From Nitrososphaerota archaeon (GTDB lineage Archaea > Thermoproteota > Nitrososphaeria > Nitrososphaerales > Nitrosopumilaceae): a stretch of 36,462 bases of DNA. This document shows positions 4,785 to 23,436 of the stretch, piece by piece; within the stretch, counting starts at the first letter, position 1; each line of letters begins with the position of its first letter. A program made the translations under genes and the position numbers. The notes beneath the pieces were generated by a model. It saw only the letters and a list, made by a program, of their open reading frames with translations, ran no database searches and was not told the origin of the DNA. The stretch lies in the NCBI GenBank assembly GCA_021325595.1, contig JAJPGX010000032.1:1-36462 (forward strand). Reading direction: 5' to 3'.

Positions 4785-7625
4785 TTGTATAGTTCATCTA
4801 CACAATCCGGTCCACCTCCACGTGATACTGGCAGATACATCAGAATTGGAATAGCCGCTATAATTGGAATTATAATTTTTGTAATGGGAAGCAACCAAGC
4901 CGTAATCCTTTACATGAATTTTCTAGAATTTGGTACCATCTTTACAAAACCTCTCTATTATTCATTGATATCGGCACTAGTTCTCTCATCAATTGCACTG
5001 ATTAGGGTAAATATCAAGAATCGCTCCTCGATATCCTGGTATGGACTGCATACAGCCCTAACTTTTCTCAAAAGAGGTTCCAATTATTCCGTAACTGACG
5101 GAATCAAAAGCTTTTCTGAATACAAGCTAAGTGTTCCAAACTTTATCATATGGCAAATTACAAAGGTCTTGCTCTTTGGTGCATTCTTTACAAATCTAAT
5201 GTTTGGGTTTGCGGTATCATATATGATCGAAGGAAATGACCTCGGCATTAACAGTCTCTGGCAAATATTCTCACTTCCATTTGCTTTCACCCCGACTGAT
5301 CCGTCATATGCTCTTGCAAAAGTTGTACCGATGATTCCTTCTCTAACCATTCTCATTCCTCCAATTCTTGCTGTTATAGGACTTAGACTTGTGCTCTATG
5401 TTGGAATACATAATATTGCAAAAACAATCATAAACTATGTACAAGACTCAGCAAAGGGAAAACCACGATTTTTAGATTATGTTGCTACCGTGGAGGGAAT
5501 AATTGGTGCAGGTATCATCTGGGCTGGGGTAAACATGTTCTTTACATCCCAGATAGATTACAACACAAAATATGCTATAGGAGGAACACTGGCAGCTGGA
5601 TTTGCTCTGGTGGGATTTTATTTTGTTGATAAATTCAAGTCCAAAGTAATAATTCATCCTTCAAAACGTGATATCTATGTTAGAATTTTTACGCTAGTTG
5701 CAATAGCAATTATCGCTGGCGCAATAATGACAGTAAACAACAGCATTGCTGATGCAAAAAAGATAGAATATCTAGGTCCCTATAAAGCACAACAAATTGG
5801 GGTAAATCGTTATCTTGGAGAGCTAGATCAAATTACGGTTGTACCAAACACCGTAAAGCTAAGCTCCGTATCGCCTGACAACATAACTAATTACATATCT
5901 TCTAACAATGACGTTCTGCAAAAAATACGAGTATGGGACTGGGATGCAGCATTTGCAAAATTAAAGCCCGAGATTGGCCTTATTCCATATGTAGATTTTG
6001 AAAACAATGACATTTTACGATTCAATGATACTCTATACTGGACTGCATCAATGAAACCACAACTTCCCTCATCTGTAAGCGTAGAAAATAGATGGTATAA
6101 TGAACATCTTGTTTATACCCATGTTGACAATGGATTTCTTACTCTTAATGCTCATAATGGAACAATTGTAGATAGTAGCAAGATCTTCAAACAGCGAGTC
6201 ATGTACTATGGTGAAGGAGGTTTATTTTCAGATACTTGGGCAGCTTATCCAACAGATCGACAAGTCTCTGCAGAGCTAAACAATGCATCGTACCATGGAA
6301 AGGGCGGTATTGATGTGAATCCTCCAATGAGCCAGATCTTTGAACCAAATTTCTTCTTGTCATACCCTACTGAACCAATACACATAATCAGATTCAGAGA
6401 TGTTCACGACAGAATGCAACTCTTGTATCCATATTTCCAATATTCCTTATTTGATAAACAAGTGGACATATTCCCAGTTACGGACGGAAAAAAATCTTAT
6501 TGGCTTATACCACTAATAGTAGGATTTGATACAAACAATGTACCATGGTCAGTGGGTAATCCGTATCTTAGATTGGTTGGTTATGCTCTAATTGATGTGT
6601 ATGATGGAAATATCACTCTGATAAAAACAGGTGACGACTTTTTCACAAATATGTTTACGAGTCAGTATAAAGATCAGTTCATTGAAATGCCAAGTTGGCT
6701 TGACAAACAGGTCAGATATCCAGAGGAGCTTTTCAATTGGAAAGTTAACATGTTTAACATTTATCACGTACAGGATACTTCTACATTTATTCAGGCCAAA
6801 GACTTCTATGAAGTGCCAGATGGTCTTGGTACGTATTATGTAGAAGCAAAACCTCCTGGATTTGACAAATCTACATTTGTTGGTTTGCTCTCACTTGAAC
6901 TACGTGGTTCTCAAGGAAGAAATCTTGCAGGTTACATGATTGTTCAAAATGATATGCCAAATCTAGGAAAGATGCAGTTCTATCAAGTACCTCTAAATTC
7001 AGAGACCAAATTACTAGGACCATCAGCTGTAAGGGAGGCATTAGCAAGAGACCCTGACTTTGCACAATTACAAACCCTGCTGAGAAACCCACGAGTAGGA
7101 GATAATATTCTCTATAGAGTAGGAAATCAAGATGTTTACTTTATCCCAGTTTATACGGCAGGTTCCGGTGGAGTAGTAACACAGCTTGGAACAATTGCAG
7201 CTGTTGGTGCTGCCTTTGATGGGGAGTATTTTGTAGGAATGGGAGGAACTCCTCAACAAGCCTTTGCTGCTTATTTGGCAAAGATGAGTGGAGTAGCGCC
7301 AGCTAACGTAACAGCAATACTGCAACTAGATCAATCATCAAGAATGTCCACTATCACATCGATTCTTAATGAACAAAAACTATCAGTAATCAAGCCCACA
7401 ACAATCCAGTTCCCACTTACATTTGAGGAAGGCAAGGTTTCGTTTACGCAACAATCTGATCTGGACAAAACAAAGAGTCTAATCTCAACATTTGTCAAGA
7501 ACTTTGTTCATGTAGGAGATAACAGGGTAATACTGTGGCAAGAAAATGGTACTGTCAAGATAGGAACCATAAATGTAGTAGCCAATGTACCAGAACTGCA
7601 TTATATCACAATTGAGGTAAAGTGA
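4785..7625 (+). CDS. UPF0182 family large membrane protein
   Basis: 946-residue membrane protein of the UPF0182 (COG1615) family, whose function is unknown. About seven hydrophobic helices occupy residues 20-320 (for example around 22-40, 60-78, 122-145, 180-205, 235-255, 263-282, 300-318). A large domain of about 620 residues then contains family-like segments WDWDAAFAKLKPEIGLIPY, WYNEHLVYTHVDNG and YGEGG. The large domain is probably extracytoplasmic. Start is TTG at 4785, with AAAGGGGATT upstream as a possible ribosome binding site. The stop directly abuts the next gene's TTG start with no spacer, which suggests translational coupling with the glutamine amidotransferase. Confidence 0.85.
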   Translation: MYSSSTQSGPPPRDTGRYIRIGIAAIIGIIIFVMGSNQAVILYMNFLEFGTIFTKPLYYSLISALVLSSIALIRVNIKNRSSISWYGLHTALTFLKRGSNYSVTDGIKSFSEYKLSVPNFIIWQITKVLLFGAFFTNLMFGFAVSYMIEGNDLGINSLWQIFSLPFAFTPTDPSYALAKVVPMIPSLTILIPPILAVIGLRLVLYVGIHNIAKTIINYVQDSAKGKPRFLDYVATVEGIIGAGIIWAGVNMFFTSQIDYNTKYAIGGTLAAGFALVGFYFVDKFKSKVIIHPSKRDIYVRIFTLVAIAIIAGAIMTVNNSIADAKKIEYLGPYKAQQIGVNRYLGELDQITVVPNTVKLSSVSPDNITNYISSNNDVLQKIRVWDWDAAFAKLKPEIGLIPYVDFENNDILRFNDTLYWTASMKPQLPSSVSVENRWYNEHLVYTHVDNGFLTLNAHNGTIVDSSKIFKQRVMYYGEGGLFSDTWAAYPTDRQVSAELNNASYHGKGGIDVNPPMSQIFEPNFFLSYPTEPIHIIRFRDVHDRMQLLYPYFQYSLFDKQVDIFPVTDGKKSYWLIPLIVGFDTNNVPWSVGNPYLRLVGYALIDVYDGNITLIKTGDDFFTNMFTSQYKDQFIEMPSWLDKQVRYPEELFNWKVNMFNIYHVQDTSTFIQAKDFYEVPDGLGTYYVEAKPPGFDKSTFVGLLSLELRGSQGRNLAGYMIVQNDMPNLGKMQFYQVPLNSETKLLGPSAVREALARDPDFAQLQTLLRNPRVGDNILYRVGNQDVYFIPVYTAGSGGVVTQLGTIAAVGAAFDGEYFVGMGGTPQQAFAAYLAKMSGVAPANVTAILQLDQSSRMSTITSILNEQKLSVIKPTTIQFPLTFEEGKVSFTQQSDLDKTKSLISTFVKNFVHVGDNRVILWQENGTVKIGTINVVANVPELHYITIEVK

Positions 7626-10558: not shown

Positions 10559-11824
10559 GTGCACTGGAAAGATACTCTTCCTGATTGGTATGTAAAAAAA
10601 TATGGTCATCAACCATGTGTAAACATTGGTACCGCAGGACATGTTGATCATGGTAAAACTACTCTAATACAAGCACTGACTGGTGTTTGGACCAGCGCAC
10701 ATAGTGAAGAACTCAAAAGAGGAATTACAATAAGAGTTGGATATGCAGATGCTGCATTTTACAAATGTAAGAACTGTGAAGTACCACTGGGATATTCTGT
10801 AACTCCAAAGTGTAATAACTGCGGAAAAGAAAGTGAACTAACAAGAGTTGTAAGCTTTGTTGACAGCCCTGGACATGAAAGTCTAATGGCTAACATGCTT
10901 TCAGGTTCCGCTCTAATAGATGGAGCTATGTTAGTAATTGCAGCAAATGAAAAGGTGCCACAACCCCAAACAAAAGAACACTTGCTTGCTCTGCAGACTT
11001 TGGGAATAAAACAGGTGGTCTTGGTACAAAACAAAGTTGATCTAATTTCATATGAAGATGCCTTATCAAATTACTCTGACATTGTCAAGTTTGTAAAGGG
11101 CACAAATGCCGCAAAAGCACCCATTATACCAATTTCAGCACAATCAAAACTAAACATTGATGCCCTAATAGGTGCCATAGAATCAACGATACTTACACCT
11201 CAAAGAGACGAATCAAAGAACACTGTTATGCATGTTCTCAGATCATTTGATGTTAACAAACCTGGAACTAAAATCAAAGATATGAAGGGAGGAGTTATAG
11301 GCGGTAGTATCACACAAGGAACTTTTCATGTTGGTGATGGTATTGAGATAAAACCTGGATTGCTAAATGAAAAAACTGGAAAATATGAGCCAATTGTTAC
11401 AGATATAGCTTCACTTGGAACAGGCGCAGGAATAGTTGATGAGGTAAAACCCGGAGGCTTGGCGGCTATTGCTACAAAACTTGATCCATCCATGACAAGA
11501 AGTGATTCACTTATAGGTTCTGTTATTGGAAAACCTGGAACCTTACCAGAAAATTCCTACAGCGCAAAATTGGAAGTAAATCTATTTGATACCGCCGTAG
11601 GCTCATCTGATGAAATTAAAGTGTCATCAATTCAAACAGGAGAATCTCTTAGACTAAGTATTGGTACAGCTCCGTTGCTTTCCAAAGTAACAAGTGTTAA
11701 AGGCCAGACCATCGATGTACAATTTAAGAGGCCTGTCTGCTTGTTTGAGAAAAGTAAAGTTGCAATTAGCCGAAGACTTGCAGAAAGATGGAGACTTATT
11801 GGGGCAGGTGTAGCCATTGGTTAA
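10559..11824 (+). CDS. translation initiation factor aIF2 gamma subunit
   Basis: GTPase core of the aIF2 heterotrimer that brings Met-tRNAi to the small ribosomal subunit. The 421-residue protein has the P-loop AGHVDHGKTT (about residues 26-35), switch I KRGITIRVGYADA, the gamma-specific zinc knuckle CKNCEVPLGYSVTPKCNNC, DSPGHE and NKVDL, followed by two beta-barrel domains. The start GTG at 10559 is preceded by GGTTAACATAT, centred about 26 bp upstream, suggesting its own leaderless promoter after S6e. The alpha subunit lies 4 kb away on the opposite strand; the beta subunit is not in the window. Its stop overlaps the start of the PIN gene. Confidence 0.95.
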   Translation: MHWKDTLPDWYVKKYGHQPCVNIGTAGHVDHGKTTLIQALTGVWTSAHSEELKRGITIRVGYADAAFYKCKNCEVPLGYSVTPKCNNCGKESELTRVVSFVDSPGHESLMANMLSGSALIDGAMLVIAANEKVPQPQTKEHLLALQTLGIKQVVLVQNKVDLISYEDALSNYSDIVKFVKGTNAAKAPIIPISAQSKLNIDALIGAIESTILTPQRDESKNTVMHVLRSFDVNKPGTKIKDMKGGVIGGSITQGTFHVGDGIEIKPGLLNEKTGKYEPIVTDIASLGTGAGIVDEVKPGGLAAIATKLDPSMTRSDSLIGSVIGKPGTLPENSYSAKLEVNLFDTAVGSSDEIKVSSIQTGESLRLSIGTAPLLSKVTSVKGQTIDVQFKRPVCLFEKSKVAISRRLAERWRLIGAGVAIG

Positions 11825-12221: not shown

Positions 12222-12878
12222 ATGTTTGAATATGATGGAATAAAAATAAGGTGGCATGGTCATGATACATTTAGCTTAACACATGATAAGACAATCGTAA
12301 CGGATCCATACAAACTGTCAAAAAAGATAGATGCGGATCTGATACTTGTCTCGCACAATCATTTTGATCATCTAAGCAACGATGATCTAGAAAAAATCGC
12401 TTCACCAAAAACTGTAATTGTTGCAGCAAAAGAATGCATTGACATGTTACAAGGAATCTCATGTAAAAAAATAATAAGTTTGGAACCAGGAAAAGAAGAA
12501 TCAATTGATGGAATCAAGATAAAGGCAATACCTGCCTATAATATAACCAAGATAAATCCTGATACAAAAAAACCATTTCATCCAAAAGAAGATAATAAAA
12601 TTGGATTTTTTGTAACTTTTCATGGAAAAACTTTCTATCACACCGGAGATTCTGATCTAATACCTGAGATGTCTGATCTACGGCCTGACATTCTTTTTGT
12701 CCCAGTCAGTGGAACCTATGTCATGACTCCCACCGAGGCATCTAATGCGGTAGAAAAAATCAAACCAAAAATAGCTATTCCAATGCATTATGGAACCATA
12801 GTGGGAAGTCAAAGTGATGCCATTGAATTTAAGAGCAAAGTAAGATCATGCAAGGTTGAAGTACTTACAAAAGAGTAA
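12222..12878 (+). CDS. metallo-beta-lactamase-fold hydrolase (UPF0173/UlaG-like)
   Basis: 218-residue zinc hydrolase. It carries the motif SHNHFDHLS (His45, His47, Asp49, His50), HTGDSD (His140, Asp143) and PMHYGT (His189), a full binuclear metal site. WHGHDTF near the N-terminus is typical of the L-ascorbate-6-phosphate-lactonase-like subfamily, whose archaeal substrates are mostly unknown. The start ATG at 12222 has TTTAAAC at 12193-12199 about 26 bp upstream. It lies between the PIN gene and the oligosaccharyltransferase gene, with no obvious shared pathway. Confidence 0.85.
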   Translation: MFEYDGIKIRWHGHDTFSLTHDKTIVTDPYKLSKKIDADLILVSHNHFDHLSNDDLEKIASPKTVIVAAKECIDMLQGISCKKIISLEPGKEESIDGIKIKAIPAYNITKINPDTKKPFHPKEDNKIGFFVTFHGKTFYHTGDSDLIPEMSDLRPDILFVPVSGTYVMTPTEASNAVEKIKPKIAIPMHYGTIVGSQSDAIEFKSKVRSCKVEVLTKE

Positions 12879-12908: not shown

Positions 12909-15659
12909 TTGATTCAGGATACTAAACTATTTACTATACGCCGATTTGATTTTCATCTCAAACATCTGCTTATCATAGGAATACTGGCCATTTCATTTTC
13001 TCTATCTGTTATGGTAAGATCTCAGGCTGCAGATTATGGATTTCAGCTAAATGAATTTGATCCATATTTTAATTATCGAGCAACACAATATCTCCTGGAT
13101 CATGGAATAGATGCATATGTGCACTGGCATGATGACATGAGTTGGTATCCTCAAGGAAGAGACGTGTACCAAACTGCCCAAGTCCCACTTCACTTTACAG
13201 ATGCAATCTTGTACAAGGTCTTTGGAGGAGGAACCAGTCTTTATGATTTCACTATTCTCTTTCCTGTAGTTTTCGGTTCAATGACTGCTATAGTCGTTTT
13301 TGCACTAGTACGTGTAATTGGTGGAACTACGGCAGGGCTTTTTGCATCTCTGTTTTTTGCAATATCTCCACCCATAATTGTAAGAGGTACGATAGGCTGG
13401 TTCAAATCAGAACCACTAGGACTTTTCTATGGCTTACTAGGCGTATACTTGTTTCTCAGTGGTATAAAATCAAAGAATAGAAAAATTGCGGCACTAAAAC
13501 TTATTGGCGCAGGAGTATTTCTTGGAATTGGATTTGCATCTTGGGGTGGTGTGGAATTCTTCCTTGTGCCACTTGGTATATTCTTCATTGCATTACCTTT
13601 TCTAAGAAAAGATCACAAGTTCCTACTCTGGGCAATTCCACTTTTTGTAGGAGTAACAATGGCCATCTCTGGCGGTGTGTTTGCACGCCCTGGACCAGAT
13701 TTTGTTTTTGGAATGAGGGGTTTTGTAATGATAGGGCCAACTATTTTACTTGTCATCATAATTCTTGTTCAAAAATATAGTAAGGATCAACAAAAGATTC
13801 GTAATAGTTTGATGACCCTTGCAGCCTTGCTTGTTGCAGGAGTAATAATATTATCAGTCGGACATCTTGGTGGTGCTAGTTTTCGTTATCTTAATGCAGT
13901 AAATCCATTTTTAACATCAGAAGATCCACTGGTTGATTCTGTGGCAGAACATGCTACGCCCACGTTGGCACAGAACTTTACCTATTTCTCGGTTCTTATG
14001 TTGTTTGCAGGATTAGGAATCTGGTTAATATTTAGAAAAAAGAATGGGAACTACTCAAACATATCAATTAGAAATGAGATGACAATTTTTGCTTTAATTC
14101 TTGGTATAGCGGGTGCATATTCTGGATCTACCTTTTCAAGACTAGAATTATTGACAGCTGCATCTGTCATAATTTTATCATCAGTTGGACTGTCAGCCTT
14201 AACATCTGAACTTCTAAAAAAGAGTGACAAGCAAACCAAAATAATAGAATCAACAAAAAAAGGAACACAAACAAAGAAAATCAACATACCAATGTTTGGA
14301 AGAATGCCAAAGATTGCATATGTAGCCGTCATAGTCGCTTTACTTCTTGTTCCTACAATTTTTCCTGTTAATGCAAACTGGATAACAATTACAAAGTCAC
14401 CTCCGACCATATTGAATGGCGGTTCTAATTTTGCTATAGCTACAAGCGATTGGCCTGATACAATGAATTGGATAAAAACAAACACACCAGAAAATTCAGT
14501 TGTTGCATCATGGTGGGATTATGGTTATTGGATACAGACACTAGGAGACAGAAAGACACTTGCTGATAATGCAACAATAGATACTGATAGAATTGCAAAT
14601 ATAGCTAGAACATTCTTGAGTTCGCCTGACAAGGCATGGCAGATGCTTCGTGATATGGGTGCAAACTATGTACTGATCTATGTAGTAGGTCAAAAGTTTT
14701 CTTCAAACGGTCAGGACTTGTATATACTAGGTGGAGGCGGAGATGAAAGCAAGAAACAGTGGTTTATGAAAATTGGTGGTTACAATACATCTGATTTCTT
14801 GGAAGACGATCAGTTTACTCCAAAGCCAAGTTTCTGGCAGAATACTTTACTGGGACAGATGTTTCCATTTGTGCCAATAACTTACTATGATCCAAATACT
14901 CATACAGAATCGCAAACTTATACGACAGGCTATACCGCGATTTATGCAAAATCAGTAAAATATCCATCTGATGGAAATGGGCCTCTAAAACTGGTGTATT
15001 CATCACCTAGTCTTGATAGAAAAGATTCTGGAATATTTTCCGAGGTTCTGGTATACCAAGTAAATCCCGATTACAAACCTCAATTAAACAAAAATAATTT
15101 GTCTCAAGCTAATCAAAATCAGACACAAACACAGGTAAAACCAACCAGTTTGGTGCCTTCATCAACCAGTTCAGCAGTAATTGATACAAAGTTTGGAAAA
15201 ATTACATTGAATCTATATGGCAACATTGCACCAAAAACCGTAGATAATTTCATCAAGCTTGCAAATTCTGGTTTCTATGATGGTACTGTATTTCATAGAA
15301 TAGTACCAGGATTTGTTATTCAAGCTGGTGATCCTAATACCAGAAATGGTTCAAGAGACACATGGGGAACTGGTGATGCAGGCTATACAATTCCACCAGA
15401 ATTTAGTAATCTGACATTTGACAAGTATAAAGTTGGTATGGCCCGAGGACAAAGCTTGAACAGTGGAAGCTCTCAATTTTTCATAACGCTAGGTGATGCA
15501 CCATGGCTTGATGGTAACTATACCCTATTTGGCGAAGTTGCATCCGGACAAGATGTTGTTAACAAAATAGCTTCACTAAAAACGGATCAAAATGCTCAAC
15601 CAGTTGATGCTGATTCTGCTAGAATAAGTAAAATAACTATTACTAATAGTACAAAATAA
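12909..15659 (+). CDS. aglB: STT3/AglB oligosaccharyltransferase fused to a C-terminal cyclophilin domain
   Basis: 916 residues in one uninterrupted frame. Residues 1-490 hold about a dozen membrane helices, with the acidic FDPYFNYRATQYL near residue 55. The extracytoplasmic catalytic domain contains SWWDYGYWIQT, with the WWDYG motif at 535-539, and DRIANIARTFLSSPDKAWQML. Such enzymes move a lipid-linked glycan to Asn of secreted proteins. After a Gln/Asn/Ser/Thr-rich linker (about 720-752) comes a complete cyclophilin: FGKITLNLYGNIAPKTVDNF, FHRIVPGFVIQAGDP, SSQFFITLGDAPWLDG, LFGEV. The CypA Arg, Phe and Gln active-site residues are present; His126 is Tyr. The isomerase would face the outside. 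Start is TTG at 12909. Confidence 0.93.
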   Translation: MIQDTKLFTIRRFDFHLKHLLIIGILAISFSLSVMVRSQAADYGFQLNEFDPYFNYRATQYLLDHGIDAYVHWHDDMSWYPQGRDVYQTAQVPLHFTDAILYKVFGGGTSLYDFTILFPVVFGSMTAIVVFALVRVIGGTTAGLFASLFFAISPPIIVRGTIGWFKSEPLGLFYGLLGVYLFLSGIKSKNRKIAALKLIGAGVFLGIGFASWGGVEFFLVPLGIFFIALPFLRKDHKFLLWAIPLFVGVTMAISGGVFARPGPDFVFGMRGFVMIGPTILLVIIILVQKYSKDQQKIRNSLMTLAALLVAGVIILSVGHLGGASFRYLNAVNPFLTSEDPLVDSVAEHATPTLAQNFTYFSVLMLFAGLGIWLIFRKKNGNYSNISIRNEMTIFALILGIAGAYSGSTFSRLELLTAASVIILSSVGLSALTSELLKKSDKQTKIIESTKKGTQTKKINIPMFGRMPKIAYVAVIVALLLVPTIFPVNANWITITKSPPTILNGGSNFAIATSDWPDTMNWIKTNTPENSVVASWWDYGYWIQTLGDRKTLADNATIDTDRIANIARTFLSSPDKAWQMLRDMGANYVLIYVVGQKFSSNGQDLYILGGGGDESKKQWFMKIGGYNTSDFLEDDQFTPKPSFWQNTLLGQMFPFVPITYYDPNTHTESQTYTTGYTAIYAKSVKYPSDGNGPLKLVYSSPSLDRKDSGIFSEVLVYQVNPDYKPQLNKNNLSQANQNQTQTQVKPTSLVPSSTSSAVIDTKFGKITLNLYGNIAPKTVDNFIKLANSGFYDGTVFHRIVPGFVIQAGDPNTRNGSRDTWGTGDAGYTIPPEFSNLTFDKYKVGMARGQSLNSGSSQFFITLGDAPWLDGNYTLFGEVASGQDVVNKIASLKTDQNAQPVDADSARISKITITNSTK

Positions 15660-15817: not shown

Positions 15818-16618
15818 TTAACCTTCACGGGTTTTCTTTGATTCTTCCCTTGTAAACTTGAAAGTGCCACCCTTTTTCTTAATATTGGTTTCAATTTCTT
15901 CCAAAATGGGTCTTAGTTCTTTTTCAGCTTCTTTGAAGTTTTGCGCAGATATAGATATTCTGTATTTGGGAGCACCTATGTATGTAACTGAAACATTTAC
16001 TTTTTTGTTTTCCATTGCTTCAAGCAAAGAATTCTTGATTATTTCAATCCCGTTGGATTTTGGGCATGTAAGCTCCAATACGCCACGTATCTCAACATGT
16101 GGAACCTGAATTTTTGAGCTTAATTCCTCGATTACGGGAATTGATTTGGGAGGGAGCTTTAGGTCTTCTAAAATAGACATGCCTTTAGCGGAAACTTCTG
16201 AAAATGCATCATAAATTGAACCAAATTTATCTGTCAGCAAATTTTCCAGTTTTTCAATCTCTGTTTTTGTAAGATTTCCTTTGGACTTGAGATTATCAAT
16301 CAGTGCTTTTTCCTTTTCTGTTCTTTTTATCTCTAAGAGTTTCTTTTTCTTTTGATCTGCAGATACCTGTTTTAATGATAAATCTATTTCAGACCTGCCA
16401 GGGTCTACTCTTTTTACAAGAAGGACTTTTTTTTCTCCAACCTTGAGAAATTTTTCTACATTGCGTATCCAGCCAGTTGCAATTTCTGAAACATGTAAAA
16501 ATCCTTGAATATTGTTATATTCATCAAGTGTAACATATGCTCCTTGATCCATAATTCTAGTTACTGTGGAAACTACAATTTCTCCTACTTCAGGAAAATC
16601 TTGTACAGTTGTTGTCAT
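15818..16618 (-). CDS. translation initiation factor aIF2 alpha subunit
   Basis: Alpha subunit of aIF2, contributing to Met-tRNAi binding. It has an N-terminal S1/OB domain (residues 1-85: PEVGEIVVSTVTRIMDQGAYV, LHVSEIATGWIRNV, VKRVDPGRSEIDLSLK), a helical middle domain and a C-terminal alpha/beta domain (VNVSVTYIGAPKYRISI). I place the start at ATG 16618 (MTTTVQDFPEVGE). A TTG at 16627 would add three residues, but TTTAAT at about 16643-16648 lies about 26 bp before 16618. It has 266 residues, the usual size, and is followed directly by nop10. Confidence 0.95.
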   Translation of the reverse strand: MTTTVQDFPEVGEIVVSTVTRIMDQGAYVTLDEYNNIQGFLHVSEIATGWIRNVEKFLKVGEKKVLLVKRVDPGRSEIDLSLKQVSADQKKKKLLEIKRTEKEKALIDNLKSKGNLTKTEIEKLENLLTDKFGSIYDAFSEVSAKGMSILEDLKLPPKSIPVIEELSSKIQVPHVEIRGVLELTCPKSNGIEIIKNSLLEAMENKKVNVSVTYIGAPKYRISISAQNFKEAEKELRPILEEIETNIKKKGGTFKFTREESKKTREG

Positions 16619-16657
16619 ATCCTTCAAATTTTAGGTACGTAATTTAATGTTGCTGAT

Positions 16658-17191
16658 TCAAAAATCAATTCCTTTCTTAGCTCTTATTCCCAATTTGAAA
16701 GGATGTTTTATCTCTCTCATTTCTGTGACCAGATCTGCTTTTTCAATGATTTCGTCTTTTGCATGATTTCCAGTAAGAACAAGATTTACACTATCAGGTT
16801 TATCAGAAATAATTTTCAAAACATCATCTAGTTCTATTAAATTAAGATTTAATGCATAATTTATCTCATCTAATATAATTATGTCATACTTTTTTGAACT
16901 AATTTTTTCTTGAGCTATCTTTAATGCCTCTTGAGCAATTTTTTTATGATCTTCTATAGGACTTTTATCATCCATTATTCCAACAAATCCCTTGCCCACT
17001 GCCGTTAGTTCAAATTCTGGCTCTAGCCTTTTTGATGATGTCATTTCGCCATAATGCCACGAGCCTTTGATGAATTGTATCATGCAAACCTTATGATTGT
17101 ACCCTATTGCTCGCAAGGCCATGCCTAAAGCCGCAGTTGTCTTGCCCTTTCCTTTTCCTGTATACACTATTACCAGCCCTTCCTTTGTCAC
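16658..17191 (-). CDS. cobO: cob(I)yrinic acid a,c-diamide / cob(I)alamin adenosyltransferase (CobO/CobA type)
   Basis: Transfers the 5'-deoxyadenosyl group of ATP to the cobalt of corrinoids. It has the variant P-loop YTGKGKGKTTAALGMALRA, then VCMIQFIKGSWHYGE, DIIILDEINYALNL and LVLTGNHAKDEIIEKADLVTEM, all hallmarks of the CobA/CobO/BtuR family. The frame stays open upstream to an ATG at 17275, but those 28 residues (Cys/Trp/Tyr-rich) are not family-like. GTG at 17191 gives the normal 177 residues and has CTTTTTA about 26-30 bp upstream. It is divergent from the flavoprotein-cbiA operon and 39 bp upstream of aIF2-alpha. Confidence 0.9.
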   Translation of the reverse strand: MTKEGLVIVYTGKGKGKTTAALGMALRAIGYNHKVCMIQFIKGSWHYGEMTSSKRLEPEFELTAVGKGFVGIMDDKSPIEDHKKIAQEALKIAQEKISSKKYDIIILDEINYALNLNLIELDDVLKIISDKPDSVNLVLTGNHAKDEIIEKADLVTEMREIKHPFKLGIRAKKGIDF

Positions 17192-17256
17192 TACAAGGAA
17201 TTTTTTACACGTAGGGTAAAAAGATTGGGATATACAAGAAAGCCACACCTTATAAT

Positions 17257-17276
17257 ATTGAATTGAAAAATTCAAT
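17257..17276. promoter_or_regulatory. perfect inverted repeat in the cobO / flavoprotein-cbiA divergent promoter
   Basis: ATTGAATT and AATTCAAT flank the 4-nt spacer GAAA, giving 8 of 8 matched bases per arm. The repeat lies 10-29 bp before the TTG start of the flavoprotein at 17286, just downstream of or overlapping its TATA-like TATAATA (17251-17257). That is a repressor-like position. The sequence is AT-rich, so chance is possible. Confidence 0.45.
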
Positions 17277-17285
17277 GACTGTATA

Positions 17286-18515
17286 TTGACTAAAAATTAT
17301 GATTATGACATAATAATTGTGGGTGGAGGTCCTGCTGGTTTATCTGCAGCATGGAGCGCATCACAAAAAGGTCTGCATGTTGCTGTACTTGAAAAAGATG
17401 AAGCAATAGGGCAAAATATCAGAACAAGCGGCGTAACTTGGATAAAAGAAGCCAGATCATTTGGTATTCCAAATGATTACTATAACGAAATTAGTAACTA
17501 TGCCTTTTATTCCCCAAGCAATTTTGTATTAAAAAAAACCAAAGAAGCTCAGGCCGCAGTATTAGACGTAAGAAGAACTTATCAATTTCTGGCATATCAA
17601 GCAGCAAGTAAAGGCGCAGATATTTTCCTGCGAACCAATGTTACCGATGTTATAAAAAATGAGAAAAACACCATATCTGGAGTAAAGGCAACTTCACTTA
17701 AAGAAGATCTGACTTTTAATGCTAAATTGGTAATTGACGCAAGTGGATTTTATTCAGTAATTGGAAAATTACTTGGCCTTGTTTCCTCATGGAAGAGATT
17801 TGGAGCAGGTGCTGAATACGAGGCGTACGTAGACAAGATTGATTCTGATACGTGGTATCTCATGGTAGGTTCACAATACTCTCCTGCAGGATACGCATGG
17901 ATATTTCCATTGGGGAAAAATAAAGTTAGAATAGGCGTTGGCGTTGGCAAACCTGAATCGCCAGCTGATGCAAGCAAGCTTTTGATTGAATTATTAGAAA
18001 AAAAACCAAAACCGCTAGATGGTCTTGGAAAAATAGTACCCATCGAATTTCATTATGGTTTGATACCAAATGAGGGTCTCAGGCAGTCAACAATTGATGA
18101 TGGCCTTATTCTGGTAGGAGACTCTGCAGGACAGGCAAATCCTCTTGTTCTTGAGGGTATACGATATGCAATTGAGTTTGGTAGACTGGCAGGAAAGAAA
18201 GGAGCAGAGGCAGTAATTGGCGGTGATACATCAAAACCATCGCTCAAGTCTTATGAAGATTCCATGAGAAAAGCCATAGGCTCTAAGATAGCTGCAGCAG
18301 TAAAGGTGCAACATAGATGGCTGAATCTAAGTGATCAAGAATGGGATAAGGAAATTGAAATAATAGATGAACTGTCCGCAGAAGAATTTCTTGATTTTAT
18401 CAAAGCAGATTTTGGAGTGTTTGATATGCTGCAACTTGCGACCAAACACCCAAAGCTGGCCATGAGACAGCTCTTTCAGATGATGAAAAATTCAAGAAAG
18501 GACGAAGCGAAATGA
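17286..18515 (+). CDS. FAD-dependent oxidoreductase of the geranylgeranyl reductase family, in the cobalamin locus
   Basis: 409-residue flavoprotein. The N-terminal Rossmann motif IIVGGGPAGLSAAWSA (Gly13-Gly18) is followed by an acidic residue binding ribose (VLEKDEAIG), and a later FAD motif lies in DDGLILVGDSAGQANPLVLEGIRYAIEFGRLAG. This is the architecture of the geranylgeranyl reductase/halogenase-like group. Archaeal relatives often reduce isoprenoid chains of membrane lipids. Its stop overlaps the cbiA start by 4 nt (ATGA), so it is co-translated with a corrin amidase. A cobalamin-linked reductase role is therefore a competing hypothesis. Start is TTG with a TATA-like box at about 17251-17257. 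Confidence 0.85.
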   Translation: MTKNYDYDIIIVGGGPAGLSAAWSASQKGLHVAVLEKDEAIGQNIRTSGVTWIKEARSFGIPNDYYNEISNYAFYSPSNFVLKKTKEAQAAVLDVRRTYQFLAYQAASKGADIFLRTNVTDVIKNEKNTISGVKATSLKEDLTFNAKLVIDASGFYSVIGKLLGLVSSWKRFGAGAEYEAYVDKIDSDTWYLMVGSQYSPAGYAWIFPLGKNKVRIGVGVGKPESPADASKLLIELLEKKPKPLDGLGKIVPIEFHYGLIPNEGLRQSTIDDGLILVGDSAGQANPLVLEGIRYAIEFGRLAGKKGAEAVIGGDTSKPSLKSYEDSMRKAIGSKIAAAVKVQHRWLNLSDQEWDKEIEIIDELSAEEFLDFIKADFGVFDMLQLATKHPKLAMRQLFQMMKNSRKDEAK

Positions 18516-19864
18516 AAATTCCTAGACTAGTACTTGCAGGTGCTACAAGCGGAGTAGGCAAGACATCTATAACTGCAGCAATAATTTATGGTCTTAAAAA
18601 AAGGGGATACTCGGTCCAGCCATTCAAGGTTGGGCCTGATTTTATAGATCCAAGCTACCTTTCCGCAATTTCAAATAGAGCCGCAAGGAACCTTGATGTT
18701 TGGCTAATGGGAAAAAATGGAGTTCTGAATAGCTTTGTACAGAATTCTGTTTCTGATGTATCAATCATAGAAGGAGTGATGGGATATTATGATGGATTTA
18801 GCGGCAAATCAAGTTTTGCAAGTACATATCATGTTGCATCACTTACAAGTTCTCCTGTAATTCTTGTCCTTGATGCAAGTAAAACTGCACGCTCTATTGC
18901 TGCAACTGCAATGGGATTTGCAAGTTTTGAAAAGAACTCTAGAATATGCGGTGTAATACTAAACAAGATTGGAAGCAAAAGACATGAGCAACTCTGCCGT
19001 GATGCCCTTGCCAAGACAAAACTATCCATATTAGGTGTGATTCCAAGAGATAACGATATACATCTGGAATCAAGGCATCTTGGATTGATTCCAGTACAAG
19101 AAAATATGTCACTTGATAAAAAAATCAAGTCAATTGCAAAATCACTATCTGAATTCATTGACATTGATAAAATAATTAGATTTTGTAATAGTGCACCTGT
19201 CTTACCATCAATTATCAGAACCAAGCACAAAAAGAAGCAAACCACAATATCTGTAGCACTTGATCAATCATTCAATTTTTATTATCAAGATAATCTTGAT
19301 TGCCTGAAAAGGGCTGGTGCAGAATTGAAGTTTTTCAGCCCAGTTTCTGACAAAAAGATACCTGCATGTGATGGAATCTATCTGGGAGGTGGATTTCCAG
19401 AAGTAAAAGGAGAACTACTCCGAAAAAACACACCGATGCTAAAATTGATAAAAAAATCTGCCGAAGACAACATTCCAATATATGCAGAATGTGGGGGATT
19501 GATGTATCTGACCAAATCAATAAGATACAAGGATGCAAAATTTAAGATGGTTGGGCTTTTTGATGCTGTAACAGTAATGGAACAAAAATTGAAACTAAAC
19601 TATACCAAGGCACGATCCAAGCCAAGTTCATTTTTGATAAAACCGCATAGCATTCAGGGACATGAATTTCATTACTCTCAATTGGATTTGGTATCAAGGG
19701 ATTCCAAGTTTGCATATGACTTGTCTGTTGGAATTGGAATCAAGGACAAAAAAGACGGGCTTGTTGCTTACAATACACTTGCATCATACATGCATCTTAA
19801 TTTTGAAACACCATCAATATCTGATGATTTTGTAAAGTCATGCATTTTGCATTCTAGAAAGTGA
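18512..19864 (+). CDS. cbiA: cobyrinate a,c-diamide synthase
   Basis: ATP- and glutamine-dependent amidation of the a and c carboxylates of cobyrinate. The N-terminal dethiobiotin-synthetase-like domain has the P-loop AGATSGVGKTSITAA (residues 9-23) and FKVGPDFIDPSYL. The C-terminal class I glutaminase domain has DGIYLGGGFPE and AECGGLMYLTKSI, with nucleophile Cys327, plus QGHEFHYS with the triad His. The 450 residues match the family. Start ATG overlaps the flavoprotein stop (ATGA), with an AAGGAC-like motif upstream. It is convergent with cbiC, the stops being 2 bp apart. Confidence 0.95.
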   Translation: MKIPRLVLAGATSGVGKTSITAAIIYGLKKRGYSVQPFKVGPDFIDPSYLSAISNRAARNLDVWLMGKNGVLNSFVQNSVSDVSIIEGVMGYYDGFSGKSSFASTYHVASLTSSPVILVLDASKTARSIAATAMGFASFEKNSRICGVILNKIGSKRHEQLCRDALAKTKLSILGVIPRDNDIHLESRHLGLIPVQENMSLDKKIKSIAKSLSEFIDIDKIIRFCNSAPVLPSIIRTKHKKKQTTISVALDQSFNFYYQDNLDCLKRAGAELKFFSPVSDKKIPACDGIYLGGGFPEVKGELLRKNTPMLKLIKKSAEDNIPIYAECGGLMYLTKSIRYKDAKFKMVGLFDAVTVMEQKLKLNYTKARSKPSSFLIKPHSIQGHEFHYSQLDLVSRDSKFAYDLSVGIGIKDKKDGLVAYNTLASYMHLNFETPSISDDFVKSCILHSRK

Positions 19865-19866
19865 TG

Positions 19867-20508
19867 TTATTGCTTGGAATTTTTTGCAGATAATATTTTA
19901 AAAAGTGCATTAATAATTGCAGATGCACATGGACTTCCACCCTTTCTGCCAATGTTTGTGATATATGGAATATCTGTACCGCGAAGATCATCTTTTGATT
20001 CTGCAGCGCATACAAACCCTACTGGAATACCAACAACCAATGCTGGTGCTGTTACACTTTCTTTTATCATCTGTATTACTTCCAAAAGTGCAGTAGGTGC
20101 ATTGCCTACAGCAACTATTCCGCCATTCATCTGTTTTGCAGCCATCCTCATTGCGGTCTGAGCTCTAGTCTTGTTTAGCTTTTTTGCTTCTTCTACAACC
20201 TTTGTGTCTGATATGCTACATATCACTTGGTTTCCAAATCTCTGTAGGTTATCCTTGTTTAATCCCCCGATGACGCCGTTTACATCTACAATTATGTTAC
20301 AGCCTTTTTGCAATGCATCAATCCCGTTTTTTATTGCATCTTTGTGAAAGACTATTTTTCCATCTCTTGCAAAATCAAAATCTGCTGTAGAATGAATCAC
20401 TCTTTTGACTATGATCCACTCCTCAGGTGAATATGAATGAGGGCCAATCTCACTGTCGATTATTTCCATGCTCTTGTCCTCAATCGACTGTCCCTTTTGA
20501 GTAATCAT
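19867..20508 (-). CDS. cbiC: precorrin-8X / cobalt-precorrin-8 methylmutase
   Basis: Catalyses the 1,5-sigmatropic methyl shift from C11 to C12 that forms (cobalt-)hydrogenobyrinate. The 213-residue protein has VKRVIHSTADFDF with the catalytic His39, VDVNGVIGGL, NKTRAQTAMRM, GGIVAVGNAPTALL and VVGIPVGFVCAAESKDDL, all diagnostic. It is the last gene of the minus-strand cbiD-cbiG-cbiX-cbiC run. Its ATG overlaps the cbiX stop by 4 nt and is preceded by a strong Shine-Dalgarno GGAGGT. Confidence 0.95.
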   Translation of the reverse strand: MITQKGQSIEDKSMEIIDSEIGPHSYSPEEWIIVKRVIHSTADFDFARDGKIVFHKDAIKNGIDALQKGCNIIVDVNGVIGGLNKDNLQRFGNQVICSISDTKVVEEAKKLNKTRAQTAMRMAAKQMNGGIVAVGNAPTALLEVIQMIKESVTAPALVVGIPVGFVCAAESKDDLRGTDIPYITNIGRKGGSPCASAIINALFKILSAKNSKQ

Positions 20509-21251
20509 GATTCAACCTCCCTTGCTCTCTCAATTATCAAGTCAATCATTTTCTCATCTACTCCTATGTGCTTTGTAATGAGAACTTTTTTTAAATTGTG
20601 CTTTTCAAGTGCAGGTTTAAGGTCCGTGTTGATATCTGTTTTTACATGTGCACCCTCATGTAAAAAATAAAACACTATGACTAGAACATCTGGATCTCTT
20701 TTCTTGCATATCTCTACTCCATGTTCAATGTTTGGCTCTTCAATCTCTAGAAAACAAAAATCTACATTTCTATATGACTTGCTTAGCTCATCTGTTACAT
20801 ATTTTATCGAGATCTTTGCATTGGGATCCATGCTGCCATGACCAATTACTAGAACATCTATCTCATTTTCTGGAAGTGTTATTCCATCTTTTTCAAGTGC
20901 TGATCTTATCCTGTTTTTAACAAGCTCCACTAGTGTTATGTGCATGGACATTGGTTTTGTTACAAGAAACTTTACCTTTGTATTTGCTTGATATTTCATT
21001 ACCTCAGTTACTGCAGCCTTTACCTTTTTGCCAGGATATAGAAAATATGGCACTATGGTAAGTGAATCTAAATTATGTTGAAGGCATTTTTTTATTCCAT
21101 CTTCTATGTATGGAGGCCGCACTTCCAAAAAGCAATATTCAGCATAATCATAATTGCCCTTTTCTCTTGCTTTCTTGGATATTATCTCCAACTCCTCTTC
21201 TGACTCTCTTTCCTTGCTTCCTCTATCTATTAGTAACAATCCACGTTTCAA
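20505..21251 (-). CDS. cbiX: sirohydrochlorin cobaltochelatase CbiX, two-domain form with degenerate N-half
   Basis: Inserts cobalt into sirohydrochlorin. The 248-residue protein is two CbiX-like repeats. The C-terminal half keeps both metal/catalytic histidines, His138 in VLVIGHGSMD and His202 in FYFLHEGAHVKTDI. At matching positions the N-terminal half has Arg10 (LLLIDRGSKE) and Lys76 (YFLYPGKKVKAA), so it is probably non-catalytic. Start is TTG at 21251, overlapping the cbiG stop by 4 nt (TTGA), with an AAGGAGAT ribosome binding site just upstream. A related ferro- or nickel-chelatase role is possible, but the operon strongly favours cobalt. Confidence 0.88.
   Translation of the reverse strand: MKRGLLLIDRGSKERESEEELEIISKKAREKGNYDYAEYCFLEVRPPYIEDGIKKCLQHNLDSLTIVPYFLYPGKKVKAAVTEVMKYQANTKVKFLVTKPMSMHITLVELVKNRIRSALEKDGITLPENEIDVLVIGHGSMDPNAKISIKYVTDELSKSYRNVDFCFLEIEEPNIEHGVEICKKRDPDVLVIVFYFLHEGAHVKTDINTDLKPALEKHNLKKVLITKHIGVDEKMIDLIIERAREVES
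20515..20520 (-). promoter_or_regulatory. strong Shine-Dalgarno site of cbiC
   Basis: GGAGGT on the minus strand, 6 nt before the cbiC ATG (20508). It lies inside the end of cbiX and fixes the cbiC start. It contrasts with the leaderless first genes in this genome. Confidence 0.75.
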
Positions 21252-22312
21252 CTTGATCTCCTTGCTATGGCAATTGTAAGATTTGGAGGGAACTTGTGTT
21301 TTTGAACAATCAATTCCCCGCCTGAGGCCTTTATGGCTGCTGCTTCTGATACACTTGGTGTGCCCTCAAACGTTTGCACTACATCTGAGGGATTAGGTAT
21401 GATAATTGTCGCAAGTGTCTCCTTTTCAAAATACTCTATTGGTATATTAGTCTCCTCTGATAGTTCCTGTAATCCCTTGACATCTGACTCTTTTTTTATT
21501 GATGCAAATTTTGCAATGGATTTTGGGCTGAGCTTAAACTTGGATAGACAAAAGTTCATACCTTCCTTTATGGTTTCTTTTGTAGTGTCCCAGTGCAGTC
21601 CTATGCCAACTGTCAGAGTCTTTGGTCTATAAACTACGGCCTGTTCCAAAATTTTCTTGTCCTCTATAATTTTATCAGTTATTATTAGAAATCCCTTACA
21701 ATCAGACTGTACCAGATCATTCAATGTATTGTAAATATGTACATTTTTTGGCAATTCTTTTTTTGGGCTCCACCAGTCTTTTTCTCCTGCATCTTGAAAT
21801 ACGCCAATTTTTTCTTCATTTACCATAAAGGCGCTCACCTTGGTTACGTTGGTATGATCATCTATAATCCAACCAAATTCCTTTCCAACCAAATCTACTG
21901 GAATGGTTTTGTTCACATCTGCTGCTGTGGTTATAACAGGAGTTGCATGTAGGGCATCGGATATCTTTTCAGTAAGCTCATTTGCTCCACCCAAGTGGCC
22001 TGAAAGAGTACTTATGACAAACTTTGCTGTATCATCTATTACTACAACTGCCGGGTCTGTTTTTTTGTCTTTTAGGTGGGGGGCAATTAATCTTATAACA
22101 GCACCAAGTGAGAATATGCATATCATTGCATCATAACTTGAAAACAACTCCTTTACTTTGGATGTGGTGGTTTCCTCAAACCATCGTATCTGTGAATCAT
22201 TATTGGAGAGCTTTGAAGGGGCAAATATCTCCCAAGATGTAAAGTGTTTTTTTAGTAAAGTTGCTATGTTTATACCGTTTTTAGTTATTGCAAGTATGGC
22301 TGTCTTGTCCAA
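21248..22312 (-). CDS. cbiG: cobalt-precorrin-5A hydrolase
   Basis: Opens the delta-lactone of cobalt-precorrin-5A and releases acetaldehyde, the ring-contraction step of the anaerobic pathway. The 354-residue protein has the N-terminal domain with ICIFSLGAVIRLIAPHLKDKKTDPAVVVID and FVISTLSGHLGGANELTEKI. A linker follows, then the C-terminal CbiG domain (LTVGIGLHWDTTKETI, ASIKKESDVKGLQEL, PSVSEAAAIKASGG). Start is TTG at 22312, 5 bp after the cbiD stop. It is in line with cbiX and cbiC. Confidence 0.94.
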   Translation of the reverse strand: MDKTAILAITKNGINIATLLKKHFTSWEIFAPSKLSNNDSQIRWFEETTTSKVKELFSSYDAMICIFSLGAVIRLIAPHLKDKKTDPAVVVIDDTAKFVISTLSGHLGGANELTEKISDALHATPVITTAADVNKTIPVDLVGKEFGWIIDDHTNVTKVSAFMVNEEKIGVFQDAGEKDWWSPKKELPKNVHIYNTLNDLVQSDCKGFLIITDKIIEDKKILEQAVVYRPKTLTVGIGLHWDTTKETIKEGMNFCLSKFKLSPKSIAKFASIKKESDVKGLQELSEETNIPIEYFEKETLATIIIPNPSDVVQTFEGTPSVSEAAAIKASGGELIVQKHKFPPNLTIAIARRSS

Positions 22313-22317
22313 GATCT

Positions 22318-23436
22318 CTAATTTTTTGCGCTCTCAAGATATTTGTTACTCTTTGGAAATAATCCTATGACATTTCCATCAAAATCAAACATTATTACCT
22401 CAATCTTGAATTTGTTATCAGAATGCTTTCCAAGTTGGGTGGCAACTTCAGAACAAACCATGTCAAAAAAGCCAAGAACCTTTTTTTCATTTATTATCTC
22501 AAAGACATGCCTTGCGGTATTTGCCTCCCTGATTTGTTTTACTACATCCTCAGGTGCCCTGCACTTTAGGGCTATGCCGGCAAGAAACTCCATGTCCACC
22601 TTTGATCCTTTTACATGGGTTTGCTTTACTCCCATGCCCATCTTTGTTAGTTTTCCGATAAATCCTGCAACATATGCCATCTTGATTCCTTTCTTTGCAC
22701 ACTGCTGTACAGTATATCCAGAAAAGTCACCCATCTGTACAAAGCAATGATCGGGAAGATCAATTATCTTTCTTGAAAAATCCTCGCTTCTTCCTCCGGT
22801 TGTTAATACTACAGTATCATTTCCCATTGCCAAAGTAACATCGATGCTCTGCCTAATTGATGCCGCAAAAGATGCTGTAGAATATGGTATTACAATTCCG
22901 CTTGTTCCTAGAATGGAAATTCCACCAATGATTCCAAGCCTTGGGTTATCTGTCTTAATTGCAAGTTCTTTTCCCTTTGGAACGGATATTGTTACTTTGA
23001 TTCCTTTTTTTACAAGAAGGTCTTTTGCTATCTCTAAAATATTTTCCCGTATCATTTTTTTGGGTGTGGGGTTTATTGCGGCAGAACCTATCTCAAGTCC
23101 AAGTCCGGGTTTTGTAACCCTGCCAACTCCTTCTGCTCCGTCAATTTCTATCTCTCCTTGTTTTTCATTCAGGGAAACATTTGTTATTATTTCTGCACCA
23201 TGTGTTACATCTGGATCATCGCCGCCGTCTTTTATTACGGAACATGTGGAACTTTGCGAATCAAAAACACAACTCTCAATTTTTATTCTAATTTGTGATT
23301 TTTTTGGCAGTGCTACATCTACAAAATCTATCTTTTTTTGATTCAATATGGCAAGAACTGCAGCCTTTGCACCAGCAGTAGCGCATGTACCTGTGGTAAA
23401 ACCTGTCCGTAACTTTTCTTTTGTTTTATTTTCCAC
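22318..23436 (-). CDS. cbiD: cobalt-precorrin-5B C1-methyltransferase
   Basis: SAM-dependent methylation at C1 of the contracted corrin ring. The 372-residue protein begins with the family signature LRTGFTTGTCATAGAKAA. It then has GGDDPDVTHGAEI, GAEGVGRVTKPGL, GGISILGTSGIV, TTGGRSE and MGDFSGYTVQQCAKKGI. Start is GTG at 23434-23436. GTATTAATCC at 23457-23466 is centred 26 bp upstream, pointing to a leaderless mRNA, so this gene probably opens the cbiD-G-X-C operon. The J-protein gene lies upstream in the same direction, 40 bp away. Confidence 0.95.
   Translation of the reverse strand: MENKTKEKLRTGFTTGTCATAGAKAAVLAILNQKKIDFVDVALPKKSQIRIKIESCVFDSQSSTCSVIKDGGDDPDVTHGAEIITNVSLNEKQGEIEIDGAEGVGRVTKPGLGLEIGSAAINPTPKKMIRENILEIAKDLLVKKGIKVTISVPKGKELAIKTDNPRLGIIGGISILGTSGIVIPYSTASFAASIRQSIDVTLAMGNDTVVLTTGGRSEDFSRKIIDLPDHCFVQMGDFSGYTVQQCAKKGIKMAYVAGFIGKLTKMGMGVKQTHVKGSKVDMEFLAGIALKCRAPEDVVKQIREANTARHVFEIINEKKVLGFFDMVCSEVATQLGKHSDNKFKIEVIMFDFDGNVIGLFPKSNKYLESAKN

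What the first reader, a model, noticed from the sequence alone, without database searches (positions are those of the whole stretch)
12909..15659. Oligosaccharyltransferase and cyclophilin fused in one membrane protein
A complete STT3/AglB enzyme (WWDYG motif at residues 535-539) continues in frame through a Gln/Asn-rich linker into a full cyclophilin domain with most CypA active-site residues. The STT3 C-terminal domain is outside the membrane, so the prolyl isomerase would act on the same emerging chains that are being glycosylated. This suggests a single-molecule station for N-glycosylation and folding at the archaeal cell surface. Known eukaryotic and archaeal OSTs do not, to my knowledge, carry a built-in prolyl isomerase.
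Basis: partly seen in the sequence, partly recalled or inferred. Interest (0 to 1): 0.75.

Follow-up and report, generated by a model that had tools for sequence, protein, structure and literature searches.

The report
Glycosylation enzyme fused to folding helper
In ammonia-oxidising archaea, the membrane enzyme that attaches sugar chains to surface proteins carries a built-in protein-folding enzyme on a flexible arm; I found no earlier description of this old and mostly conserved fusion.

Summary
The fusion is real. Window 12909-15659 (+) is one 916-residue ORF: a full STT3/AglB oligosaccharyltransferase (WWDYG at 535-539), a disordered ~26-residue linker, and an intact cyclophilin (758-901). 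It is the genome's only full STT3. It is not an assembly artefact: I collected 84 distinct in-frame fusions, and in Nitrosopumilaceae fused and unfused STT3 share one gene neighbourhood. The fusion occurs in all four amoA-positive families and in none of the amoA-negative families tested. The STT3 tree fits one gain on the ammonia-oxidiser stem and about five losses; two loss cases keep a leftover linker. The cyclophilin keeps its catalytic residues and is under purifying selection like the STT3 part. The linker varies from 13 to 84 residues and holds more N-X-S/T sequons than shuffles give. Some amoA-negative relatives carry a stand-alone membrane-anchored cyclophilin. Best reading: a prolyl isomerase tethered beside the glycosylation site, acting on secreted chains. 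Activity and substrates are untested, and the losses show the transferase does not need it. Nearest known parallel: FKBP11, a separate prolyl-isomerase-family protein at the human OST-A translocon. New variant of a known kind.

The parts
12909..15659 (+). Fused STT3/AglB-cyclophilin ORF, 916 aa, TTG start, stop included
   Evidence: only full-length STT3 in the genome
12909..14393 (+). N-terminal polytopic membrane region (GT-C fold), residues 1-495
   Evidence: hydropathy, AF2 helices, PDB fold matches to STT3A/Stt3/AglB
13050..13073 (+). EL1 motif NEFDPYFN (first DxD region; D51 invariant in 84/84 fused)
13395..13415 (+). EL2 motif G-W-F-K-S-E-P: position of the second DxD/DxE motif, with Lys166 in place of the acid
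   Evidence: alignment to human STT3A
13938..13952 (+). EL5 motif SVAEH (counterpart of TIXE/SVSE)
   Evidence: motif definition in PMC8342417
14511..14525 (+). WWDYG catalytic/sequon-binding motif, residues 535-539
14421..15074 (+). External C-terminal globular domain of STT3, residues about 505-722
15087..15164 (+). Disordered tether, residues about 727-752, with two N-X-S/T sequons (N730, N737)
   Evidence: pLDDT < 50; sequons; 85 linkers of 13-84 residues
15180..15611 (+). Cyclophilin-type peptidyl-prolyl isomerase domain (Pfam extent, residues 758-901); catalytic Arg is R797
12222..12878 (+). MBL-fold metal-dependent hydrolase just upstream; conserved neighbour in Nitrosotalea-, Nitrosotenuis- and many Nitrososphaeraceae loci
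10559..11824 (+). aIF2 gamma, syntenic marker
15818..16627 (-). aIF2 alpha, syntenic marker at the other side (convergent)

Best explanation
This is the sole oligosaccharyltransferase (AglB/STT3) of an ammonia-oxidising archaeon, with an apparently intact cyclophilin tethered to its external C-terminal domain by a flexible, sequon-rich linker. Proposed working: the STT3 part, next to the Sec channel, transfers the lipid-linked glycan to N-X-S/T sites on chains crossing the membrane. The cyclophilin swings on its tether in the same extracytoplasmic space and speeds cis-trans isomerisation of prolines in those chains (S-layer, multicopper oxidases), so that glycosylation and folding are coupled by local concentration. 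Evolution: a free-standing membrane-anchored cyclophilin, of the kind seen in amoA-negative relatives, was re-anchored on STT3 once, on the stem of the ammonia oxidisers; the domain was later lost cleanly several times. SHOWN (sequence or computation): fusion, conservation, intact active site, purifying selection, disordered tether, taxonomic distribution, syntenic losses. INFERRED: outward orientation, isomerase activity, substrates, coupling, source of the domain, and glycosylation of the linker.
For: ORF and domains. 84 distinct in-frame fused proteins compared with 44 unfused AOA and 11 non-AOA STT3. All four amoA-positive families carry fusions; none was seen in 18 amoA-negative genomes of f4 and f6-f16, nor elsewhere in the phylum. 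STT3 tree: AOA one clade (support 100), fused state clustered, 6 changes. Fused and unfused copies share the S6e-aIF2gamma ... aIF2alpha-cobA-cobB neighbourhood in Nitrosopumilaceae. Left-over linker tails in L111 and L182 with no cyclophilin downstream. Counterparts of R55, A101, Q111, L122 in 31/31 and of Q63 in 30/31 fused domains. dN/dS of the cyclophilin about 0.03-0.2 in most close pairs, like STT3. AF2: both domains confident, linker disordered; folds match STT3A/AglB and cyclophilins. TM-anchored stand-alone cyclophilins in f4, f7, f11, f12. One origin of the fused domain not rejected: log-likelihood 5.4 higher when held together, p-AU 0.62.
Against: No biochemical or proteomic evidence for the joined product was available. 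The domain was lost about five times while STT3 stayed, so it is not needed for transfer. The free cyclophilin tree does not unite the fused domains (weak supports). Lineages that lost it mostly have a secreted CFI-box cyclophilin, so a general envelope isomerase may be the relevant function rather than OST coupling. In the human parallel FKBP11's catalytic site is buried by CCDC134 and the authors argue against nascent-chain isomerase activity there (PMC12804085).
Confidence: 0.6

Rival explanations
1. STT3 serves only as a membrane anchor for a general envelope cyclophilin: the isomerase works on any surface protein, and co-location with glycosylation is incidental (one anchor exchanged for another).
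For: Some amoA-negative relatives anchor a cyclophilin by an N-terminal TM helix (L160-L162, L164, L166); many Nitrosopumilaceae have a signal-peptide, CFI-box-anchored cyclophilin; Nitrosocosmicus-like genomes have a secreted protein carrying a similar linker plus cyclophilin (L148, L149); the linker is long and variable.
Against: The fused domain persists in lineages that also have the CFI-box cyclophilin (g12, g16, g17, g22 and G023), so it is not simply interchangeable. A TM helix is a far more common anchor than the sole OST.
Confidence: 0.22
2. The cyclophilin is a non-catalytic adaptor or chaperone module that docks nascent chains or a partner (like FKBP11 at the human OST-A translocon) rather than an isomerase.
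For: FKBP11 precedent (PMC12804085); cyclophilins can act as scaffolds (general knowledge).
Against: Catalytic Arg and substrate-pocket residues are conserved in almost all 31 fused domains checked and the domain is under strong purifying selection; adaptors often lose these residues.
Confidence: 0.1
3. The fused ORF is made as one chain but cut in the linker, releasing a soluble extracellular cyclophilin; the fusion is a secretion device.
For: Disordered, protease-accessible linker of variable length.
Against: No conserved cleavage site seen in the linkers; a gene with its own signal peptide would be simpler, and such secreted cyclophilins exist.
Confidence: 0.06
4. Assembly or frameshift artefact.
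For: None found; one locus (L059) is frameshifted the other way, breaking the fusion.
Against: 84 distinct fused proteins from many independent assemblies, including single-contig genomes.
Confidence: 0.01

Closest known systems
STT3/AglB/PglB oligosaccharyltransferases (human STT3A 6s7o, yeast Stt3 8agc, A. fulgidus AglB 7e9s)
   Same: GT-C membrane fold, EL1 Asp motif, EL5 SVSE-like motif, WWDYG, external C-terminal domain
   Different: Carries a cyclophilin after the C-terminal domain; EL2 DxD is K-S-E. Other Thermoproteota with long AglB tails that I read carry other extensions, apparently beta-rich, with no cyclophilin match
Cyclophilin-type PPIases (CypA, PPIL1, PpiA of M. tuberculosis 1w74)
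   Same: Fold and catalytic residues
   Different: Attached to a membrane glycosyltransferase by a disordered sequon-rich tether
FKBP11 at the human OST-A secretory translocon (PDB 9n9j; PMC12804085)
   Same: A prolyl-isomerase-family protein held next to the STT3 catalytic subunit at the site of glycosylation
   Different: Separate polypeptide of an unrelated fold (FKBP), present at the translocon with CCDC134 and nascent GRP94, and argued not to isomerise nascent chains there; resemblance is functional, not homology
CFI-box secreted cyclophilins of Nitrosopumilaceae and TM-anchored cyclophilins of amoA-negative Nitrososphaeria
   Same: Extracytoplasmic tethered cyclophilins in the same class of archaea
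   Different: Anchored by a C-terminal membrane segment or an N-terminal TM helix, not by STT3

Membership tests
STT3/AglB/PglB oligosaccharyltransferase | Polytopic N-terminal GT-C membrane domain with OST fold | tested here: met
   Pfam PF02516; Foldseek to STT3A, Stt3, AglB, PglB
STT3/AglB/PglB oligosaccharyltransferase | First DxD region in EL1 | tested here: met
   NEFDPYFN, D51 invariant
STT3/AglB/PglB oligosaccharyltransferase | Second DxD/DxE motif in EL2 | tested here: inconclusive
   K-S-E: Glu168 kept, Lys166 in place of the acid in all 84 fused and 44 unfused AOA sequences; a class-wide trait, not decay of this gene
STT3/AglB/PglB oligosaccharyltransferase | TIXE/SVSE motif in EL5 | tested here: met
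   SVAEH, E347 invariant
STT3/AglB/PglB oligosaccharyltransferase | WWDYG motif in external C-terminal domain | tested here: met
   535-539, invariant
STT3/AglB/PglB oligosaccharyltransferase | Glycan transfer activity | not testable with these tools
   Indirect only: Ns. viennensis, with a single aglB, glycosylates its S-layer (PMC12153357); that its aglB is the fused gene is inferred from family f3 and the size of genome G253 (2,527,938 bp)
Cyclophilin | Cyclophilin fold, Pfam PF00160 over cut-off | tested here: met
   155.8 bits, cut-off 21.7; AF2/Foldseek
Cyclophilin | Catalytic Arg55, Phe60, Gln63, Ala101, Gln111, Phe113, Leu122 | tested here: met
   All present in the window
Cyclophilin | PPIase activity | not testable with these tools
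   needs an assay
FKBP11-type translocon accessory | FKBP fold on a separate polypeptide | tested here: not met
   Domain is a cyclophilin, joined to STT3; works-alike at most

The most novel reading that the evidence does not exclude
The ammonia-oxidiser stem evolved a one-protein glycosylation-folding machine: the OST-tethered isomerase works in cis on chains leaving the Sec channel, raises folding and sequon use of S-layer and multicopper oxidase proteins, and glycosylates its own sequon-rich tether. Its loss in marine lineages is linked to their changed or absent surface N-glycosylation.
Probability: 0.25. Interest if true: 0.8.

Novelty: new variant of a known kind. Interest (0 to 1): 0.6.

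Why it matters
N-glycosylation and folding of secreted proteins are coupled in eukaryotes by many separate factors at the translocon. Here an abundant and globally important group of archaea, whose STT3 resembles the eukaryotic one, put a folding enzyme on the glycosylation enzyme itself, apparently once, near the origin of archaeal ammonia oxidation. That gives a compact two-domain system for testing whether prolyl isomerisation and glycosylation are coupled, with natural deletions (Nitrosopumilus, Cenarchaeum-like, Nitrosopolaris) as controls. It also matters for work on AOA S-layers: the published glycoproteome study compared a species from a family with the fusion to one from a lineage that mostly lacks it, and its main text does not mention the domain.

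Tried and rejected
Assembly artefact: rejected (84 distinct fusions). Programmed stop or readthrough: the search tables reported '1 TAG/TAA/TGA' inside some full-length matches, but the four such loci whose junctions I translated (L035, L039, L041, L062) have no stop between the domains, so I read these as terminal stops. Adjacent-gene ancestor: no cyclophilin within 5 kb of unfused STT3. Decayed cyclophilin after STT3 in loss cases: only insignificant matches in L111 and L182. Fusion elsewhere in the phylum: none seen in 300 genomes drawn from the phylum, apart from the AOA among them; long AglB tails there are other extensions. Origin of the fused cyclophilin by tree: not resolved; the free tree scatters fused domains, but holding them together is not worse. 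Literature: no paper in the held open-access library was found to describe the fusion; the 2021 survey of archaeal PPIases and the 2024 survey of archaeal fusions do not mention STT3 or oligosaccharyltransferase in their main text. Subscription papers (for example the 2020 AglB evolution survey cited in PMC12153357) could not be read, and automated domain databases may already list the architecture.

Full report
WHAT IS THERE. The ORF at 12909-15659 (+) is open for 916 codons from a TTG. Pfam finds STT3 (41-316), the STT3/PglB core (529-581) and a full cyclophilin (758-901, E 1e-45). The closest solved relatives of the first part are human STT3A/B and yeast Stt3. The genome, 99.5% complete, has this one full STT3 and one separate cytosolic-type cyclophilin on another contig. 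A second PF02516 match, on contig C24, is weak. Motifs: EL1 NEFDPYFN, EL5 SVAEH, WWDYG 535-539; the EL2 DxD is K-S-E. No membrane segment follows residue 500. In the AF2 model both domains are confident and residues 727-752 are disordered. Foldseek matches the membrane part to STT3A/Stt3/AglB and the tail to cyclophilins.

IT IS NOT AN ARTEFACT. Within the window's genus, 26 of 36 relatives searched have a fusion spanning nearly the whole query, three more have it in part or in two matching pieces, and none has a complete unfused STT3. After removing duplicates I held 84 fused, 44 unfused AOA and 11 non-AOA STT3 sequences. In Nitrosopumilaceae, fused and unfused copies lie between S6e-aIF2gamma and aIF2alpha-cobA-cobB, so one orthologous gene differs by the presence of linker plus cyclophilin. 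Unfused STT3s end at about residue 725, with no cyclophilin within 5 kb.

DISTRIBUTION AND HISTORY. Fusions occur in f1 (the window's family; Nitrosotalea-, Nitrosotenuis- and some Nitrosopumilus-named lineages), f2 (genus g31), f3 (Nitrososphaera, Nitrosocosmicus and others) and f5. amoA (PF12942) is found in exactly these four families among 36 genomes tested; 18 genomes of f4 and f6-f16 lack amoA and none showed a fusion. G237 of genus g23 (f2) has amoA but no STT3. No fusion was seen in the rest of the phylum. In the STT3 tree AOA form one clade (support 100) and the label needs six changes. With the amoA-negative outgroup at the root, one gain and about five losses is the simplest reading; the count alone cannot tell gain from loss. 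The losses: the Nitrosopumilus/Nitrosarchaeum clade, other Nitrosopumilaceae genera, L182 (a 2,045,086-bp genome, the size I recall for Cenarchaeum symbiosum, whose genus-mate G023 is fused) and Ca. Nitrosopolaris (L111). L182 and L111 keep linker-like tails without a cyclophilin, which argues for secondary loss. Two genomes of genus g36, probably Nitrosopolaris-like, have no cyclophilin at all.

THE CYCLOPHILIN IS MAINTAINED. Counterparts of CypA H54, R55, A101, Q111 and L122 are in 31/31 fused domains and Q63 in 30/31. In close pairs its dN/dS is mostly 0.03-0.2, like STT3. So it is not riding along passively.

THE LINKER. 85 linkers run from 13 to 84 residues: Thr 18%, Ser 17%, Asn 13%. They hold 172 N-X-S/T sequons against 116.9 +/- 8.1 in shuffles; taking one per cluster, 29 against 18.2 +/- 3.4, p = 0.001 with 24 clusters. 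Density is 5.8 per 100 residues, against 1.7 in the STT3 external domain and 1.1 in the cyclophilin. The window's linker has two (N730, N737). About 30% of linkers have none, and runs such as NSSST inflate the count, so glycosylation of the tether is a suggestion only.

ANCHOR EXCHANGE. Several amoA-negative relatives carry stand-alone cyclophilins behind an N-terminal TM helix, one (L162) with a Gln/Ser-rich spacer. Many Nitrosopumilaceae have a ~500-residue cyclophilin with signal peptide, PsbP-like middle and CFI-box C-terminus. Nitrosocosmicus-like genomes have a secreted protein ending in an Asn-rich linker and a cyclophilin that groups with their own fused one. Tethering a cyclophilin outside the membrane is thus a recurrent theme in this class, and STT3 is one of several anchors. 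This supports the outward placement, and it is also the basis of the main rival (STT3 as mere anchor). The cyclophilin tree is weakly supported; a single clade of fused domains is not rejected.

HOW IT PROBABLY WORKS. The catalytic C-terminal domain of every OST structure is on the side where lipid-linked sugar and acceptor meet, so the tail is outside (established structural knowledge). A ~26-residue tether lets the isomerase reach chains at the OST. I infer that it speeds proline isomerisation in secreted chains while or just after sequons are used. Ns. viennensis, with one aglB, glycosylates its S-layer and two multicopper oxidases; Np. piranensis, also with one aglB, showed no N-glycosylation and low OST abundance (PMC12153357). 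Family f3, which contains Nitrososphaera, carries the fusion, and the Nitrosopumilus lineage mostly does not. That is a correlation from two species, not evidence of cause.

COMPARISON. By membership it is an STT3/AglB and a cyclophilin; neither alone is new. The joined architecture was not found described in the held papers. The nearest functional parallel turned up through the fold search: the top match, 9n9j, is a human translocon with FKBP11 next to OST-A (PMC12804085). There the isomerase is a separate protein of another fold, and the authors argue it is not acting as an isomerase on nascent chains.

VERDICT. Confirmed, conserved, old, and apparently undescribed. Function of the coupling is plausible but untested, and the domain is dispensable in several lineages.

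Noticed in passing
13395-13415 (residues 163-169): The EL2 DxD/DxE motif of the OST is G-W-F-K-S-E-P; Lys166 is invariant in 84 fused and 44 unfused AOA STT3s and in 9 of 11 amoA-negative relatives, a class-wide departure from the usual metal-binding acid.
   Followed up: partly
L142-L147, L150-L159, L179: Many Nitrosopumilaceae encode a ~500-residue cyclophilin with an apparent signal peptide; in the one scanned (L144) a PsbP-like middle domain and a CFI-box C-terminal domain follow. The window's Nitrosotalea-like genus seems to lack it.
   Followed up: partly
L148, L149: Nitrosocosmicus-like genomes have a secreted protein ending in an Asn-rich linker and a cyclophilin that groups with the STT3-fused one of the same genomes: probable copying of the tail onto another secreted protein.
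   Followed up: partly
L111, L182: Unfused STT3s that end in a left-over linker-like tail with no cyclophilin downstream: natural deletions of the domain.
   Followed up: yes
G237, G240, G241, G245, G264 (f2 genus g23): No match to the query STT3 in any of the five; G237, checked by Pfam, has amoA but no PF02516 and no cyclophilin.
   Followed up: no
G004, G026, G042 (genus g5): 0.8-Mb genomes in the window's family with no STT3 match and no cyclophilin: a reduced lineage.
   Followed up: no
L222-L229: Some other Thermoproteota AglB proteins carry long C-terminal extensions that look beta-rich, Ig-like in some: the OST C-terminus seems a modular attachment point. Not scanned against Pfam.
   Followed up: no
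L086: Record titled Chitinophagaceae bacterium (CROMO_A_82) holds an AOA STT3 locus with archaeal S6e and aIF2 neighbours: a misbinned contig.
   Followed up: no
16658-23436: Cobalamin genes beside the locus: CobA, CobB, CbiC, CbiX, CbiG, CbiD.
   Followed up: no
4785-7625: 946-residue UPF0182 membrane protein of unknown function; matching DNA also lies upstream of aIF2gamma in some related Nitrosopumilaceae loci.
   Followed up: no
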